In this document: positions 26,525-37,100 of the stretch, piece by piece | Numbering within the stretch: position 1 is the stretch's first letter | Layout of the letters: the number at the start of each line of letters is the position of its first letter | Assembly (NCBI GenBank): GCA_025965975.1 | Contig: JAOPVX010000217.1 | Location: 1 to 46,989 of the forward strand | Length of the DNA stretch: 46,989 nt | DNA from: Mycobacterium sp. | GTDB taxonomy: Bacteria; Actinomycetota; Actinomycetes; Mycobacteriales; Mycobacteriaceae | Reading direction: 5' to 3' | Position numbers and translations under genes: made by a program | The notes under the pieces: model-generated | The model's input: the letters and a program-made list of their open reading frames with translations, nothing else | Databases searched by the model: none | Told to the model about the DNA's origin: nothing

Positions 26525-26764
26525 CTAACGGGCCAGCTTGGCCTTGATCTCTTCACCGCTGGGGTTGGTCAGCGTCGAACCGTCGGCGAACTTCAGCGTC
26601 GGCACGGTCTGATTGCCGCCGTTGACCGAGGCCACGAATTCCGCCGCGACGGGATCGGCTTCGATGTCGACCTCAGCGAACGAAATCCCCTCCGCCTTCA
26701 GAACCTTCTTCAAGCGGAAGCAGTAGCCACACCACGACGTGGTGTACATGGTCAGAGCGCTCAT
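26525..26764 (-). CDS. mrx1: Mycoredoxin-1 (glutaredoxin-like)
   Basis: A 79-residue thioredoxin-fold oxidoreductase with active site WCGYC (C12, C15) and the cis-proline loop TVPT. Mycoredoxins reduce mycothiol mixed disulfides with mycothiol as electron source. It matches Rv3198A, next to uvrD2 as expected. It diverges from uvrD2 with 70 bp between starts. The 104 bp between its stop and nudC contain a GC-rich intergenic element but no gene. Confidence 0.92.
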
Positions 26765-26834
26765 AAGCCGTTCAACATATCGGATAACGCCAACATGCCC
26801 GCGCCGCGCCCGACTTTTGTCACAGCGCGCTGCC

Positions 26835-28958
26835 ATGATGGACCGCATGCCGGTCGAGGCCCCCTCCAGCGAGCGCGAACTCATCACGGGTGACCTCGAC
26901 GACGAGCAGCGCGAAGCCGTCCTCGCGGCCCGTGGGCCGGTATGCGTGCTGGCCGGCGCCGGCACGGGAAAGACCCGAACCATCACCCGCCGCATCGCCC
27001 ACCTCGTGGCGGCGGGACACGTCGCGCCCGGCCAGGTGCTCGCGGTGACGTTCACCCAGCGGGCCGCGGGAGAGATGCGCGGCCGGCTGCGTGCGCTCGA
27101 CGATGGTGTCGGCATCGGCTTCGTGCAGGCGATGACCTTTCACGCCGCGGCCCGGCGCCAGCTGTCGTACTTCTGGCCCCGCGTCGTCGGCGACACCGGA
27201 TGGCAGCTGCTCGATACGAAGTTCGCGGTCGTCGCCCAATCCGCCAACCGGGCCGGGCTGCAGGTCAGCACCGACGACGTGCGCGACCTCGCAGGCGAAA
27301 TCGAATGGGCCAAGGCGTCTTTGATCAGCCCCGAGGACTACGCCGCCGCGGTCGCGCAGGTCGGCCGCGACATCCCGTTGGACGCCGCGAAGATCGCGAC
27401 GGTCTACGCCGGATATGAGACGCTCAAGGCCCGTCGTGACGGCATGGCGCTGCTCGACTTCGACGATTTGCTGTTGCACACCGCTGCCGCGATCGAGAAC
27501 GACGACGCCGTCGCACAGGAATTCCGCGACCGCTATCGCTGCTTTGTCGTCGACGAATATCAGGACGTCACCCCGCTGCAGCAGCGAGTGCTCGACGCCT
27601 GGCTGGGCGGTCGCGACGACCTCACCGTCGTCGGCGACGCCAACCAGACCATCTACTCGTTCACCGGTGCCACACCGCGCTACCTGCTCGACTTTTCGCG
27701 GCGGTTTCCCGACGCCGCTGTGGTGCGACTCGAGCGCGACTACCGGTCCACACCGCAGGTGGTGTCGCTGGCCAACCGCGTGATCGCCGCCGCCCGCGGC
27801 CGGATGGCCGGCAGCAAGCTGCATTTGGTGGGCCAGCGTGACCCGGGCCCGGCGCCGTCGTTCACCGAGCACACCGACGAGGTGGCCGAGGCCGCAGCGG
27901 TCGCCAAGAAGATCAAGAACCTGATCGAATCGGGCACCGCGGCCTCGGAGATCGCGGTGCTGTACCGCATCAACGCGCAGTCGGAGGTATACGAGGAAGC
28001 GCTCACCGAGGCCGGTGTCCCGTTTCAGGTGCGCGGCGGCGAGGGCTTTTTCAGCCGCCAGGAGATCCGGCAGGCACTGCTGGCACTCCAACGGGCAGCA
28101 GAACGGGACGTCGAAGGCGAACTTCCAGACGTCGTGCGTGCGGTGCTCGAGCCGCTCGGCCTGACGGCAGAGCCGCCGCCGGGCACACGGGCCCGTGAGC
28201 GGTGGGAGGCGTTGAGTGGGTTGTCCGAACTGGTCGACGAGGAGGTGGCGCAGCGACCGTCGCTGGATCTGCGTGCCCTGCTGGCCGAGCTTCGTCAGCG
28301 CGCCGATTCGCGCCACCCCCCGATCGTGCAGGGCGTCACCCTGGCGTCGCTGCACGCCGCCAAGGGGCTGGAGTGGGATGCGGTGTTCCTGGTCGGGCTG
28401 GCCGACGGCACGCTGCCCATCTCACATGCGCTGGCGCACGGTCCCGACAGCGAGCCTGTCGAAGAGGAGCGCCGGCTGCTCTACGTCGGAATCACCAGGG
28501 CAAGAATGCATTTGGCGCTGAGTTGGGCGCTGGCCAGGGCACCGGGCGGTCGGCAGAGCCGACGGCCGTCGCGCTTCCTCAACGGCATCGCCCCACAGTC
28601 GCCCAGCGACGTGGGCCCCAGCCGGCCTCGACGACCGCGCGGCGCCACACCCCGCTGCCGCGTCTGCAACGACACGCTGAGCACGCCCGCCGCGATCATG
28701 CTGCGTCGCTGCGAAAGCTGCCCGTCCGACATCGACGAGGAGCTGCTCGCCGCGCTCAAGGAGTGGCGGCTGCGCATCTCGAAGGAGATGAGCGTGCCCG
28801 CCTATGTGGTGTTCACCGACAACACGCTGATCGCAATCGCCGAGACGCTGCCGACCGACGATGCCGCGCTGGTGGCGATCCCAGGCATCGGCGCGCGCAA
28901 GCTGGAGCAGTACGGCCCCGATGTGCTCGCGATGGTCAAGGGCCGCCAATCGTCGTAA
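26835..28958 (+). CDS. uvrD2: UvrD2 DNA helicase with tetracysteine and HRDC domains
   Basis: A 707-residue SF1 helicase. Walker A is GAGTGKTR, then [48 protein letters not shown] and YVGITRAR. A zinc-type tetracysteine (CRVC and CESC) and a C-terminal HRDC domain ([25 protein letters not shown]) complete the RecQ-like tail that marks UvrD2. In mycobacteria it is essential and the tetracysteine is needed for unwinding. Three in-frame ATGs (26835, 26838, 26847) leave the exact start open. Confidence 0.93.
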
Positions 28959-28983: not shown

Positions 28984-29020
28984 AAAATCGGTTGTGGGTT
29001 CGGCCTGATACTCTTAATCT
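28984..29020 (+). promoter_or_regulatory. whiB7 promoter with AT-rich WhiB7 site
   Basis: AAAAT (28984-28988) lies 3 bp before the -35 TTGTGG (28992-28997). The -10 TAATCT is at 29015-29020 with a 17-bp spacer. An AT-rich block just upstream of the -35 is the known landing site of the WhiB7 AT-hook, so autoregulation is expected. Predicted start near 29027, giving a leader of about 380 nt. Confidence 0.72.
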
Positions 29021-29058
29021 CAAGATCACATCGCGAGTGGAAGGAGGGTGCCCAGATC

Positions 29059-29259
29059 ATGGCGAATATCAACGCATTTACCGGCGTAGGCGTTGCCGGC
29101 ATGTCGCGGACCCTCCACGCCGGTTCGGCCGCCGCCGCCGCGGCGCATCCCGCGTTTTGGACGCACGCCGCTGCGGGAGCCGCCGCTGCTATTGCGCCGC
29201 AGCGCAAGCGCCGCACCGCCACCGCGACTGGCGCGTCCGTGGATCGGGGCACCACATAG
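29059..29259 (+). CDS. Alanine-rich upstream ORF / leader peptide of whiB7
   Basis: A 66-codon ORF beginning 12 nt after AGGAGG (29042-29047), inside the whiB7 leader. It has 22 alanines, with runs of six (codons 24-29), three and four, then a basic patch (PQRKRR). WhiB7 leaders are known to contain an alanine-rich upstream ORF linked to sensing translation stress and alanine shortage. The last codons contain an RNA segment that can pair with the terminator arm downstream (next entry). The peptide probably has no function beyond being translated. Confidence 0.78.
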   Translation: MANINAFTGVGVAGMSRTLHAGSAAAAAAHPAFWTHAAAGAAAAIAPQRKRRTATATGASVDRGTT

Positions 29260-29318
29260 GAGAGCCCACGATCTAGCCGAAAGGCCACGGACCCGCAGTC
29301 AAAGGATCCGTGGCCTTT
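29231..29318 (+). promoter_or_regulatory. whiB7 transcription attenuator: terminator and antiterminator
   Basis: Terminator: AAAGGCCACGGA (29280-29291) pairs perfectly over 12 bp with TCCGTGGCCTTT (29307-29318); the following T-run is weak (TTTAGTTATT). Alternative: GCGCGTCCGTGG (29231-29242), in the last codons of the leader ORF, pairs with CCACGGACCCGC (29285-29296) at 11 of 12 positions, destroying the terminator stem. A ribosome finishing the ORF would cover the upstream segment and let the terminator form; one stalled on the alanine runs would leave it free. Pairings are seen; the mechanism is inferred. Confidence 0.7.
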
Positions 29319-29406
29319 AGTTATTCGGACACCGAAGACCTGGTCACGGACCCATCAGAAGACAGATGGCCGACGAAACAACGACCAGGAAGCAGGGGTA
29401 CGAGTC

Positions 29407-29721
29407 ATGTCAGTTGCGATGAGCGCTCGCGCGAAGAGCGTCCAATCGAAGACATGCCGTGAGAGAACGATGCTGTCGGTGCCATGTCATGTCGGTAACC
29501 CCGACTTGTGGTTCGCCGAAAACCCGCTCGACCTCGAGCGCGCCAAGGCGCTGTGCGCGGATTGCCCGATCCGCCGCGAATGCCTTACCGCGGCGCTGGA
29601 ACGCCAGGAACCGTGGGGCGTTTGGGGCGGCGAGATCATCGACCGCGGCACGATCATCGCGCGCAAACGTCCGCGTGGACGCCCACGCAAGAACACCGAG
29701 GAGAGCCCGGCAGCCGCCTAA
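29407..29721 (+). CDS. whiB7: WhiB7 antibiotic-resistance regulator
   Basis: A 104-residue WhiB protein. Cluster cysteines are C27, C50, C53 and C59, then the WhiB7-specific EPWGVWGGE (68-76) and a C-terminal AT-hook RGRPRK (90-95) that binds AT-rich DNA upstream of -35 boxes. It activates intrinsic resistance genes (efflux, ribosome protection) after ribosome-targeting stress. The N-terminus is slightly longer than in M. tuberculosis, so a later start is possible, though ATG at 29407 has an acceptable CAGGGG before it. Position next to uvrD2 and the ABC1-kinase gene matches the conserved locus. Confidence 0.94.
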   Translation: MSVAMSARAKSVQSKTCRERTMLSVPCHVGNPDLWFAENPLDLERAKALCADCPIRRECLTAALERQEPWGVWGGEIIDRGTIIARKRPRGRPRKNTEESPAAA

Positions 29722-29742: not shown

Positions 29743-31062
29743 TCAGGCGGCTTGTTCGGCGAAGCCCGGAACCAGTTCTGCCGCAATGGCTCTGACCGGC
29801 ACGTGAGCGTCGAGCTGGCAGGATATCGCGACGATCGAGGCGATCACCCGCATCGGAATCGCCAGCTTGACGGGGATGTCCAGCTGACGGGCGGTCCTGA
29901 TCTGCGCCACCGAGCGGTCCATGTTCACCGCGGTCATCTTCTGCAGCCACTTGCGGGTGTAGTGGAACACTTCGACCTCAACCGGCTCGACATATTGGCG
30001 CAGCATGTCGTCGATTTCGCGGATCGACACCTGCTCGCCCTTCTGGATGAATCCGGCGCGCTCCATCGTGGGCAGCAGGTTGTCGTAGTCCTTGTTCATT
30101 GCGTAACGCAACGTCTGACCCAACTCGAGCGGCAAGCCGCCCGGCAGCGGGGCGACAGCGCCGAAGTCGATGACGCCCATCTTGTCGTCGGGCAGCAGCA
30201 TGAAGTTCCCTGGGTGTGCATCGCCGTGCATCATTTCCAGCCGACGTGGCGCATCGTGGGTCAGCTCGAAGAGCCGGGTGCCCATCAGGTCGCGTTGTTC
30301 TTGGGTGCCATCGCGGATGATGTGGGACATCGGGATGCCCTCAATCCATTCCTGGATCACCACTTTCGGCGCGCTGGCCACGATGTGTGGCACGACGAAG
30401 TGCGGGTGGTTCTCGTACGCCTTGGCGAACGCGCGCTGGTTGTCGGCTTCCAGCCGATAGTCCAGTTCCATCTCGGTGCGTTCGATCAGCTCGTCGACCA
30501 CGCCCTGCACGTCGGCGCCGGGGGAGAGTTGCCTGAGCATACTGACCATGCGTTGCATGGTTTTCAGGTCGGCGCGCAGCGCCTCGTCGGCGCCAGGGTA
30601 TTGGATCTTGACTGCGACCTCGCGACCGTCCGACCACACCGCCTTGTGCACCTGGCCGATGCTGGCCGAGGCCACCGGCGTGTCGTCGAACGCGGCGAAC
30701 CGCTCCCGCCACTTGGTGCCCAGCTGCGCGTCCAGCACGCGGTGCACCTTGGCGGCGACCAGCGGCGGTGCCTCCCTCTGCAGCTTGGTCAGCGCCTCGC
30801 GGTAGGGCTTACCGTACTGCTCGGGGATCGCGGCCTCCATCACCGACAGCGCCTGCCCGACTTTCATCGCGCCGCCCTTGAGCTCACCGAGGACGGTGAA
30901 CAACTGCTGGGCCGCCTTGTCCATCAACTCGGCGTTGACCTCGTCCTTCGACTTTCCGGTCAACCGTTTGCCGAAGCCCAACGCGGCCCGGCCTGCCATG
31001 CCGACGGGCAAGCTCGCCAGCTTCGCGTTGCGCGCGGCCCGACCCCGCTTGATGTCAGTCAC
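29743..31062 (-). CDS. ABC1/UbiB-family atypical kinase (Rv3197-like)
   Basis: A 439-residue protein-kinase-like fold protein. The KxGQ motif in GGAMKVGQALS, the alanine-rich nucleotide loop in TPVASASIGQVH, VAVKIQYPG, HGDAHPGNF and IDFGAVAP mark the UbiB/ADCK family, which supports quinone or isoprenoid lipid biosynthesis by ATPase activity. Start chosen as GTG at 31062 (MTDIKRGRAARN), matching M. tuberculosis Rv3197; an ATG 15 bp upstream is possible. Convergent with whiB7. In M. tuberculosis a further gene (Rv3196) separates it from the Rv3195 homologue; here only about 205 bp do. Confidence 0.88.
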   Translation of the reverse strand: MTDIKRGRAARNAKLASLPVGMAGRAALGFGKRLTGKSKDEVNAELMDKAAQQLFTVLGELKGGAMKVGQALSVMEAAIPEQYGKPYREALTKLQREAPPLVAAKVHRVLDAQLGTKWRERFAAFDDTPVASASIGQVHKAVWSDGREVAVKIQYPGADEALRADLKTMQRMVSMLRQLSPGADVQGVVDELIERTEMELDYRLEADNQRAFAKAYENHPHFVVPHIVASAPKVVIQEWIEGIPMSHIIRDGTQEQRDLMGTRLFELTHDAPRRLEMMHGDAHPGNFMLLPDDKMGVIDFGAVAPLPGGLPLELGQTLRYAMNKDYDNLLPTMERAGFIQKGEQVSIREIDDMLRQYVEPVEVEVFHYTRKWLQKMTAVNMDRSVAQIRTARQLDIPVKLAIPMRVIASIVAISCQLDAHVPVRAIAAELVPGFAEQAA

Positions 31063-31267
31063 CCGACCATCATCCATGAGAGTTCTGTGAGGACCGCAAC
31101 GACTCGGCAACAAACGCTTCAGCACCAGCAGGGAGGATGCGGCGACCACCGGCGCGCCACGATCGCAGCGGCGTTGACTTCGAACTTCGGCGTGGGTGTC
31201 CAGCGTCGGCGGCTCCGCCGAAGTCCGTACGGCCTGCCCGCGGCGCACCGCCCGGGTCAGGCCCGAG

Positions 31268-32668
31268 TCAGTCTTCGGTGTCGTCGTCGCCTTTGTCGGA
31301 ACCCTTTTGCAGGTCGGCGATCGCCTTGTCGATGGCCTCATCCATGCCACTGGTGTCGCCGCCGATCATCCGGTCGATGAAGCCGGCCGGCTCGTCGAGG
31401 TCCTCGGCGCTGGGCAACAGGTCGGGGTGCTGCCATACCGCGTCGCGGGCGTCGGCGCCGACGGCCTGCGTCAGGCGCTCCCACAACACCGCCGCCTCCC
31501 GCAGCTTGCGCGGCCGCAGCTCCAACCCGACCAGCGTGGCGAACGTCTGCTCGGCGGGCCCGCCGGTGGCGCGCCGCCTGCGTAGCGTCTCGCTCAGCGC
31601 GGACGTGCCGGGGATCCGGTCGCCCAGCGCGTCGGCGACGACGGTCTGCACCCAGCCTTCGATCAGCGCCAGCAGCGTCTCCAGCCGCTCCAGCGCCGCG
31701 GTCTGTTCTGGCGTCGCCTTCGGTTCGAAGATGCCCTGGTTGAGCAACTGCTCCATCTGCGACGGATCGGTCAGCGACGCCGGGTTGAACCCCGCCGCGA
31801 AGTCCTCGATGCCGCTCATGTCGATCTTCATGCCCTTGGCGAAGGCCTCGACGGCGTTGAGCAGCTGGCTGGCCAGCCACGGCACGTGGCTGAACAACCG
31901 GTGATGCGCGGCCTCGCGCGCAGCCAGGAAGGTGATGATCTCGCTGCGCGGCAGCTCAAGGCCCTCGGTCAGCGACTCGATGGCCTCTGGCATCAACGCG
32001 GCCACTCCCTTGGGGCCCAGTGGCAGCCCAATGTCGGTGGAGGTCAACACTTCTCGTGACAGCTTGCCCAGCGCCTGGCCGAGCTGCGAGCCGAACGCCA
32101 TGCCGCCCATCTGCGACATCATCGCCAGCAGTGGGCCGGCCATGCTCTTGGCCTCCTCGGGCAGCGCCGAGGCCCACACCGTCGAAATCTGTTCGGCCAC
32201 CGGGTCGCACAACCGCTTCCAGGTGTCCAGCGTGTTGTCGATCCAGTCGGTGGGGGTCCACGCCGCCGCCTTGGTGGTGCCCGCGGGCAGTGCGGTCACT
32301 CCGTCCAGCCACGTCTCGGCCAGGTGCACGGCGTCGGCGATCGCGGCGCTTGTCTTCTCGGGCACCGGCGCGACGAAGCCGATCGCGCTTGACGCCAGCT
32401 GCCGGGCCAGGTCGTAGTTCACCGGGCCGGACTGCTTGCCGCCGGTCATCACGTTGCCCGCGCCGCTGAACATCTCCCCGAGCCGGGTGAACATCTCCCC
32501 GAGTTGGGACATGTCGAATTCGGACCCGCCGCCGAGGCCGAACGGGTCTCCGGCGGCGGGGCCGCCAATCCCATCCGAGTCCGAGCCCGACCCCGAATCG
32601 GGATCGTTGTTGGGCTTGTCACGCTCGGGGTCGTCCCCGGCGGAGAAGCCGAAAGGCGGGTCAGCCAT
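31268..32668 (-). CDS. DUF2342 zincin-like protein (Rv3195-like)
   Basis: A 466-residue actinobacterial protein with a Gly/Asp/Ser-rich first 50 residues and a helical body. The block AAREAAHHRLF resembles the degenerate zinc-peptidase helix of the DUF2342 family; the family is sometimes annotated as F420-biosynthesis-associated, without proof. The C-terminus is acidic. The start is ATG at 32668 (MADPPFGFSAG). Diverges from the PDZ-Lon gene. Confidence 0.82.
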   Translation of the reverse strand: MADPPFGFSAGDDPERDKPNNDPDSGSGSDSDGIGGPAAGDPFGLGGGSEFDMSQLGEMFTRLGEMFSGAGNVMTGGKQSGPVNYDLARQLASSAIGFVAPVPEKTSAAIADAVHLAETWLDGVTALPAGTTKAAAWTPTDWIDNTLDTWKRLCDPVAEQISTVWASALPEEAKSMAGPLLAMMSQMGGMAFGSQLGQALGKLSREVLTSTDIGLPLGPKGVAALMPEAIESLTEGLELPRSEIITFLAAREAAHHRLFSHVPWLASQLLNAVEAFAKGMKIDMSGIEDFAAGFNPASLTDPSQMEQLLNQGIFEPKATPEQTAALERLETLLALIEGWVQTVVADALGDRIPGTSALSETLRRRRATGGPAEQTFATLVGLELRPRKLREAAVLWERLTQAVGADARDAVWQHPDLLPSAEDLDEPAGFIDRMIGGDTSGMDEAIDKAIADLQKGSDKGDDDTED

Positions 32669-37023: not shown

Positions 37024-37100
37024 CGCGGGGTGGAGCAGCTCGGTAGCTCGCTGGGCTCATAACCCAGAGGTCGCAAGTTCGAATCTTGTCCCCGCTACCA
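37024..37100 (+). tRNA. Initiator tRNA-Met (CAU), CCA encoded
   Basis: A 77-nt cloverleaf. Acceptor CGCGGGG pairs with CCCCGC, leaving position 1 unpaired. The anticodon arm CTGGG-CTCATAA-CCCAG shows three consecutive G:C pairs next to the loop, the initiator hallmark. The T arm has GTTCGAATC, and the 3' CCA is genomic. The unpaired 1:72 position and the GGG/CCC anticodon stem distinguish it from elongator tRNA-Met. Confidence 0.96.

What the first reader, a model, noticed from the sequence alone, without database searches (positions are those of the whole stretch)
28984..29406. whiB7 leader: poly-alanine leader peptide coupled to two mutually exclusive hairpins
The leader holds a 66-codon ORF with 22 alanines, a perfect 12-bp terminator stem (29280-29291 with 29307-29318) and a competing stem (29231-29242 with 29285-29296, 11 of 12 paired) whose upstream strand lies in the last codons of the ORF. 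This gives a direct model: a ribosome that finishes covers the antiterminator strand and transcription stops; one stalled on the alanine runs about 90 nt earlier leaves it free and whiB7 is read through. Alanine-rich whiB7 leaders are known; the specific alternative stem is my reading.
Basis: partly seen in the sequence, partly recalled or inferred. Interest (0 to 1): 0.75.

Follow-up and report, generated by a model that had tools for sequence, protein, structure and literature searches.

The report
whiB7 leader: translation-controlled transcription switch
A short alanine-rich peptide gene ahead of the antibiotic-response gene whiB7 works as a ribosome-progress sensor that stops or allows transcription; this kind of switch is already known in mycobacteria, and comparison with related leaders supports it and adds a few details that may be new.

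Summary
The features are real. whiB7 (29407-29721) follows a 66-codon uORF (29059-29259, 22 Ala) and a perfect 12-bp terminator stem. The alternative stem is supported, with a 7-bp core (29235-29241 with 29286-29292). Inside Mycobacterium that core hardly varies, so covariation there says little; across Actinomycetes the upstream strand changes in step with each species' own terminator arm (164 representatives; 0 of 5000 permutations as good; control window negative). The strand is held at nucleotide level (Ser codon TCC in 89 of 90). The uORF-terminator-antiterminator mechanism for whiB7 is in print, as is alanine-starvation induction. Refinements: without a ribosome the antiterminator is the predicted default; the uORF stop codon sits in a hairpin inside the antiterminator; alanine richness is mycobacterial, not class-wide; and an Arg/Lys-X-Arg/Lys motif, a known ketolide stalling context, lies 23-35 nt before the antiterminator strand in 87 of 94 distinct uORFs (shuffled mean 11.6 over a wider range), but is absent in three further leaders. 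Known system; the motif is the testable lead.

The parts
26739..28958 (+). upstream gene, UvrD-type helicase with HRDC domain (uvrD2-like)
   Evidence: Pfam UvrD-helicase 1.3e-55, HRDC 1.5e-21; the name uvrD2 is recalled
29042..29047 (+). Shine-Dalgarno AGGAGG of the uORF
   Evidence: read from sequence; SD-like motifs were required of uORFs by my filters
29059..29259 (+). uORF, 66 codons, 22 Ala, ending ...QRKRRTATATGASVDRGTT*
   Evidence: homologous uORFs in relatives
29128..29145 (+). first run of six Ala codons (24-29)
29167..29196 (+). second Ala cluster (codons 37-46, 8 of 10 Ala)
29203..29214 (+). [quoted passage not shown]
   Evidence: position-specific conservation
29231..29241 (+). 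antiterminator upstream strand (GCG C GTCCGTG), inside uORF codons 58-61
   Evidence: pairing; conservation; class-wide co-change
29242..29273 (+). hairpin GATCGGGGC/GCCC(A)CGATC with the uORF stop codon in its loop
   Evidence: fold; enclosure against shuffles; paired variants (modest control)
29257..29259 (+). uORF stop codon TAG, 23 nt before the GGCC of the terminator arm
29276..29285 (+). mini-hairpin GCC-GAAA-GGC that takes up the start of the terminator arm in the antiterminator fold
   Evidence: fold; GCC 3-6 nt before GGCC in 71 of 101 mycobacterial leaders
29286..29296 (+). antiterminator downstream strand (CACGGAC C CGC), shared with the terminator 5' arm and loop
29280..29318 (+). 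intrinsic terminator: arms 29280-29291 and 29307-29318, followed by AGTTATT
29407..29721 (+). whiB7: WhiB domain and RGRPRK hook
   Evidence: Pfam PF02467 2.8e-15; best match of a WhiB7 alignment built with it; no NCBIfam match; the name rests on domain, hook and gene order (recalled)

Best explanation
This is the whiB7 transcription attenuator. RNA polymerase transcribes an alanine-rich uORF ahead of whiB7. When ribosomes finish the uORF they pass over the strand 29231-29241 and, at the stop codon, sit in the loop of the hairpin at the heart of the antiterminator. The terminator arm, starting 20-23 nt beyond the stop, is then free to fold and transcription ends at about 29320. When the ribosome stalls anywhere in about the first 54 codons (drug, empty alanyl-tRNA), or never starts, strand 29235-29241 captures 29286-29292 before the terminator's 3' arm (29307-29318) is made, and whiB7 is transcribed. 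Supported here by sequence comparison: uORF, terminator, antiterminator pairing, stop-codon hairpin and their spacing. Inferred: co-transcriptional timing, ribosome positions, and read-through itself (published for other species, not measured for this one).
For: Terminator arm of GGCC type in 239 of 246 leaders, two then set aside; of the 237, core position 5 is G in 125, A in 110, C in 2, and position 6 is T in 4, with matching 3' arms in the rows printed. Upstream strand pairs with its own arm better than with other species' arms: mean -18.07 against -15.97 kcal/mol, 0 of 5000 permutations as low, 164 representatives; a control window about 50 nt further upstream shows nothing (z +1.3). Strand kept at RNA level: Ser codon TCC 89 of 90, preceding codon ends in G in at least 86 of 90; exact GTCCGTG in another frame in L039, L040, L052, L078. 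Stop-to-stem distance 15-32 nt in 98 of 98 mycobacterial and 125 of 131 other leaders (my uORF filter allowed -60 to 75) although uORFs run from about 46 to 120 aa. Without a ribosome and before the 3' arm is made the antiterminator is predicted (P over 0.5) in 83 of 101 mycobacterial leaders and in the window. Passages in PMC10727445, PMC9618640, PMC11550727 and PMC13393426 describe uORF, terminator and antiterminator for whiB7.
Against: Within 73 aligned mycobacterial leaders no pair of the 8-bp stem has a change on both sides. At equilibrium the terminator wins (P 0.98 in the window; the antiterminator costs 3.0 kcal/mol here and 7.6 at the median), so the model needs kinetic trapping that I could not test. 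In 14 of 101 mycobacterial leaders the predicted antiterminator probability is below 0.1. The wide-window test was weak: own window beat all further ones in 33% of 226 leaders against about 11% expected. The swap control for the stop-codon hairpin is modest.
Confidence: 0.9

Rival explanations
1. Composite-sensor refinement: the uORF carries two kinds of tuned stall sites upstream of the antiterminator strand, poly-Ala (alanyl-tRNA shortage; chloramphenicol and linezolid, which arrest with Ala at the penultimate position) and a basic Arg/Lys-X-Arg/Lys motif (ketolides, macrolides) placed so that a ribosome stalled there stops just short of the antiterminator strand.
For: Arg/Lys-X-Arg/Lys with its middle codon 12-60 nt before the strand in 87 of 94 distinct uORFs, in fact 23-35 nt in all 87, against a mean of 11.6 (maximum 22 of 500) for shuffled peptides scored over 12-60 nt; 31 of 35 peptide clusters against 3.6 (maximum 11), with 15 different codon triplets, the commonest in 11 of 31. 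Ala median 30.4% in 94 uORFs against 14.7% in 132 others and 9-10% in the other two frames. Drug contexts: PMC8298421 abstract, PMC8987054 passages.
Against: Three same-genus leaders whose uORF my filter missed (L123, L139, L140) lack the motif, and 7 of the 94 lack it at the scored position (one of them, L031, by a misplaced anchor). Outside mycobacteria it is only about twofold above shuffles (28 of 131 against 15.1, maximum 27 of 300). All mycobacterial copies share ancestry, and RNA constraint on the same stretch is not excluded. I mapped no stall.
Confidence: 0.35
2. The conserved strand and basic segment reflect selection on the uORF peptide itself, which acts in trans or as an arrest peptide, and the RNA pairing is a by-product.
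For: The peptide end ...RKRR-AAAT--ASV(D/N)RG is well conserved.
Against: Ser is TCC in 89 of 90, while Ser elsewhere in the same uORFs uses AGC (88), TCG (74) and TCC (76) about equally; the heptamer is read in another frame in 4 leaders; outside mycobacteria the peptides differ but the pairing persists.
Confidence: 0.05
3. Plain constitutive terminator of an upstream small transcript; regulation of whiB7 is by promoter only and the alternative stem is a chance repeat of a GC-rich arm.
For: The terminator is the stable state at equilibrium.
Against: Class-wide co-change of the upstream strand with the arm, and none for a neighbouring window; fixed stop-to-stem spacing; published uORF-dependent attenuation (passages in PMC10727445 and PMC11550727).
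Confidence: 0.03

Closest known systems
whiB7/wblC uORF attenuator of actinobacteria (Lee 2022, Burian and Thompson 2018, Dinan 2014; Poulton 2024 for alanine starvation)
   Same: uORF with Shine-Dalgarno, intrinsic terminator after it, antiterminator sharing uORF and terminator sequence, induction by translation inhibitors and amino-acid starvation (as described in passages of PMC10727445, PMC4128351, PMC11550727, PMC9618640, PMC13393426)
   Different: nothing in kind; this is the orthologous element in another mycobacterium. Basic motif, stop-codon hairpin and default-on prediction are my additions; whether Lee 2022 or Poulton 2024 already has them I could not check, as neither is held
trp/ilv-type leader-peptide attenuators
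   Same: codon-rich leader peptide couples aminoacyl-tRNA supply to a terminator/antiterminator choice
   Different: folding showed no protector hairpin that sequesters the antiterminator strand in the window, so absence of ribosomes is predicted to switch the gene on, and drugs that block initiation would induce too (comparison with trp recalled)
antibiotic-sensing uORFs such as toiL
   Same: ribosome stalling in a short upstream ORF controls a downstream gene in response to ribosome drugs (PMC12121999, passages)
   Different: toiL controls translation and Rho-dependent termination of its gene; here an intrinsic terminator is controlled. PMC12121999 says that antibiotic-induced stalling in the whiB7 uORF has not been tested

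Membership tests
whiB7/wblC uORF attenuator | downstream gene is whiB7 (WhiB domain plus AT-hook) | tested here: met
   PF02467 2.8e-15; alignment match 1.9e-45, though the window's own protein is one row of that alignment; RGRPRK read; no NCBIfam match
whiB7/wblC uORF attenuator | uORF with Shine-Dalgarno in the leader | tested here: met
   found by my filter in 230 of 239 leaders that have the terminator arm
whiB7/wblC uORF attenuator | intrinsic terminator between uORF and whiB7 | tested here: met
whiB7/wblC uORF attenuator | antiterminator using uORF and terminator sequence | tested here: met
   pairing; co-change across the class; within-genus test uninformative
whiB7/wblC uORF attenuator | induction by ribosome drugs or amino-acid starvation | not testable with these tools
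   published for other species only
trp-type leader-peptide attenuator | leader peptide rich in the regulated amino acid | tested here: met
   22 of 66 Ala; mycobacterial median 30.4%
trp-type leader-peptide attenuator | protector hairpin that gives termination when no ribosome loads | tested here: inconclusive
   folding predicts the antiterminator, not a protector, without a ribosome: window and 83 of 101 leaders; prediction only

The most novel reading that the evidence does not exclude
The mycobacterial whiB7 uORF is a built-in multi-drug stall array: Ala runs respond to alanyl-tRNA shortage and to phenicols and oxazolidinones, and a conserved basic Arg/Lys-X-Arg/Lys block holds macrolide- or ketolide-bound ribosomes with their front edge just 5' of the antiterminator strand, while a finishing ribosome splits the antiterminator by sitting on a stop codon embedded in its central hairpin.
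Probability: 0.3. Interest if true: 0.6.

Novelty: already known. Interest (0 to 1): 0.35.

Why it matters
whiB7 is a hub of intrinsic antibiotic resistance in mycobacteria (PMC10727445, start of abstract). The switch is known, but PMC12121999 states that antibiotic-induced stalling on its uORF had not been tested. The conserved positions found here (basic motif, Ala runs, stop-codon hairpin) turn that question into a few defined measurements and offer a sequence-based reason why chemically unrelated ribosome drugs and alanine starvation all feed one gene.

Tried and rejected
Rfam scan of the whole window at the gathering threshold: only a tRNA (37024-37097); no leader family.

Wide-window duplex energies (30-82 nt upstream) gave only a weak signal because the sequences are GC-rich; a narrower window with permutations and a control window was then used. 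Both are reported.

RNAalifold on 94 mycobacterial leaders cut just after the 5' arm returned only GTCCG/CGGAC as a consensus helix; with the 3' arm included it returned only the terminator. The stop-codon hairpin did not appear in either consensus, perhaps because its 3' strand aligns with gaps; its support is single-sequence folds and shuffles and pairing of 5' and 3' variants. The swap control is modest (5 of 5 pairs in 38 of 73, against 31.3 expected when swapped); the clearest case is GGAGC with GCTCC or GCTCT in 9 of 10 leaders.

The hairpin probabilities 'P(H outer/inner)' printed are wrong because my pair list was off by one; they are not used, nor are the 'E(AT+H)' and 'E(H only)' values. 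The folded structures of that call stand.

Rows dropped: 7 of 246 leaders without a GGCC-type arm by my script (L138, L150, L155, L213, L215, L241, L088) and 2 artefacts (L156, L178); 9 of 239 without a uORF by my filter, three of them then read by hand. Of these 101, 9 identical in the compared stretch were collapsed and 19 more were left out of alignment A2 because their upstream strand lies more than 53 nt from the stem, leaving 73. One search's listing was cut in the middle, so I used for arms.

Papers not held: Lee 2022 and Poulton 2024, so their exact base pairs could not be compared with these.

Full report
What is there. The window lies in a 7.4-Mb genome (contig C366); its whiB7 is closest, among the loci fetched, to genes of Mycobacterium sp. 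OAS707 and Mycolicibacterium moriokaense (88% identity). The locus reads: UvrD/HRDC helicase (26739-28958), the leader, whiB7 (29407-29721), and a convergent ABC1-type kinase on the other strand. The leader has a Shine-Dalgarno AGGAGG (29042-29047), a 66-codon uORF (29059-29259), and a terminator with perfect 12-bp arms (29280-29291, 29307-29318).

Related leaders. I used 246 whiB7 leaders including the window: 80 from named genomes, 45 loci from searches of 199 genomes of the order and 246 of the class (the two sets overlap), and 120 further regions chosen by hand from the listed matches, for spread over families. The WhiB7 alignment matched at E up to 1e-20 in 195 of 199 and 204 of 246 genomes. 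A terminator arm of GGCC type was found in 239 of 246, two then set aside. Its core is GGCCACGG in 110 and GGCCGCGG in 114, with GGCCGCGA in seven, GGCCGTGG in four and GGCCCCGG in two, with matching 3' arms in the rows printed. That is compensatory change in the terminator. Within 73 mycobacterial leaders the terminator also has one pair changed on both sides (U-A 40, A-U 16, U-G 1, unpaired 16).

The antiterminator. In mycobacteria the upstream strand GTCCGTG is exact in 76 of 101 leaders and within one mismatch in 96 of 101. Over 73 aligned leaders 92.1% of the cells of the 8-bp stem are paired, against 20-37% when the partner is slid, but no pair has a change on both sides, so this is conservation, not covariation. 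With the seven core pairs plus three outer pairs, one outer pair has changes on both sides (T-A 20, G-C 10, unpaired 43 of 73); the covariation score is reached by 3 of 500 shuffles and the count of cells changed on both sides by 38 of 500. The informative test is across the class. Among 164 leaders less than 75% identical, each upstream window (78-36 nt before the arm) pairs with its own arm at -18.07 kcal/mol on average against -15.97 permuted; 0 of 5000 permutations were as low. The signal holds separately for leaders with the GGCCACGG arm (67; z -5.8) and the rest (97; z -10.0), and a window about 50 nt further upstream gives z +1.3. Clear single cases: GGGTCCG with CGGACCC (L244-L246), GGATCCG with CGGATCC (L237), GTTCCG with CGGAAC (L112-L114, L116), GGGATC with GATCCC (L159-L162). 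An earlier wide-window comparison was weaker (33% of 226 leaders best at their own window, about 11% expected).

RNA, not peptide. The strand lies in uORF codons 58-61. In 90 leaders with the strand in the usual frame the Ser codon is TCC 89 times, while Ser elsewhere in the same uORFs uses AGC (88), TCG (74) and TCC (76); the Val codon is GTG in 69 of 83. In four leaders (L039, L040, L052, L078) the exact heptamer is kept in another reading frame. L039, L040 and L052 look related, so this is perhaps two events.

The fold. Before the terminator's 3' arm exists, 29231-29296 folds at -34.8 kcal/mol as GCG-C-GTCCGTG closed on CACGGAC-C-CGC, enclosing two hairpins: GATCGGGGC/GCCC-A-CGATC (29242-29250 with 29264-29273) and GCC-GAAA-GGC (29276-29285). 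The uORF stop codon (29257-29259) is in the loop of the first. At least four pairs enclose the stop in 88 of 98 mycobacterial leaders against 64.6 for shuffles, and in 123 of 131 others against 92.0. Paired variants such as GGAGC with GCTCC or GCTCT instead of GGGGC with GCCCC support it, though the overall swap control is modest. The stop lies 23 nt before the GGCC here; the distance is 15-32 nt in 98 of 98 mycobacterial and 125 of 131 other leaders, within a filter range of -60 to 75, while uORF length varies widely.

Mechanism. With usual ribosome footprints (about 12 nt ahead of the A site; recalled), a ribosome at the stop codon occupies the central hairpin and leaves the terminator arm free. 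A ribosome waiting at any of 20 of the 22 Ala codons leaves 29235 onwards free. Without any ribosome the antiterminator is predicted (P over 0.5) in 83 of 101 mycobacterial leaders and below 0.1 in 14; with the full sequence at equilibrium the terminator wins (P over 0.5 in 99 of 101), so the choice must be kinetic. In the other 131 leaders the arm is predicted paired to the upstream window in 89, against 20 with that window shuffled. Default-on without translation would explain why unrelated ribosome drugs induce; it is inferred here.

Alanine and the basic motif. Ala makes up 30.4% (median) of 94 distinct mycobacterial uORFs, 14.7% of 132 others, and 9-10% in the other two frames of the same mycobacterial DNA. 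Alanine richness thus looks like a mycobacterial trait on a class-wide switch. A second feature is an Arg/Lys-X-Arg/Lys motif 12-60 nt before the antiterminator strand in 87 of 94 distinct uORFs (middle codon at 23-35 nt in all 87), against 11.6 (maximum 22 of 500) for shuffled peptides over the same 12-60 nt. It holds in 31 of 35 peptide clusters, with 15 different codon triplets. It is missing in three further leaders read by hand (L123, L139, L140). Outside mycobacteria it is about twofold above shuffles and just over their maximum (28 of 131 against 15.1, maximum 27 of 300). Ketolides stall mainly at such motifs (PMC8298421, abstract), and chloramphenicol and linezolid arrest best with Ala at the penultimate position (PMC8987054, passages). 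Whether this happens on the whiB7 uORF: PMC12121999 (passage) says antibiotic-induced stalling within it has not been tested. [quoted passage not shown] that figure is not held, so I could not see where ribosomes sit.

What is known. From passages: Dinan 2014 (PMC4128351) describes uORF and terminator in M. marinum and M. bovis; [quoted passage not shown] PMC9618640, PMC11550727 and PMC13393426 give the same model; PMC10727445 and PMC11550727 credit alanine or amino-acid starvation to Poulton 2024 and Lee 2022. The finding is therefore an orthologous copy of a known system. In my searches no listed title or abstract start names the basic motif or the stop-codon hairpin, but Lee 2022 and Poulton 2024 are not held, so I do not claim these are absent from print.

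Noticed in passing
window 29746-31350 (-): The convergent gene beside whiB7 matches NCBIfam 'macrolide-binding ATPase MABP-1' over its cut-off (922 against 800 bits) and the ABC1 kinase-like Pfam family: a macrolide-linked gene next to the macrolide-response regulator.
   Followed up: no
window 28984-28997: AAAATCGGTTGTGG just after the helicase stop codon looks like the AT-rich and -35 part of the whiB7 promoter (recalled); similar strings occur in 40 of 246 leaders.
   Followed up: partly
L028, L031, L032, L034, L044, L047, L048, L051, L053, L061: A mycobacterial subgroup (some named nebraskense, scrofulaceum or parascrofulaceum) has a changed or differently spaced antiterminator strand; by eye a local hairpin may compete for it, and its antiterminator may have shifted.
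   Followed up: partly
L123, L139, L140: Three same-genus leaders, missed by my uORF filter, have Ala-rich uORFs ending SVHRG and two or three residues more, and lack the basic motif; in L139 and L140 they look much shorter.
   Followed up: partly
L088 (Hoyosella): The hairpin ahead of whiB7 is CCACGGACC/GGTCCGTGG, unlike the usual arm, with a 9-nt copy of its 3' arm upstream.
   Followed up: no
uORF codons 54-56 (29218-29226) and equivalents: Ala codons just before the antiterminator strand are nearly all GCC, GCC, GCG across mycobacteria (GCC in 78 of 81 Ala, GCC in 68 of 70, GCG in 60 of 65), more uniform than Ala codons elsewhere in the uORF; a further RNA constraint of unknown role.
   Followed up: no
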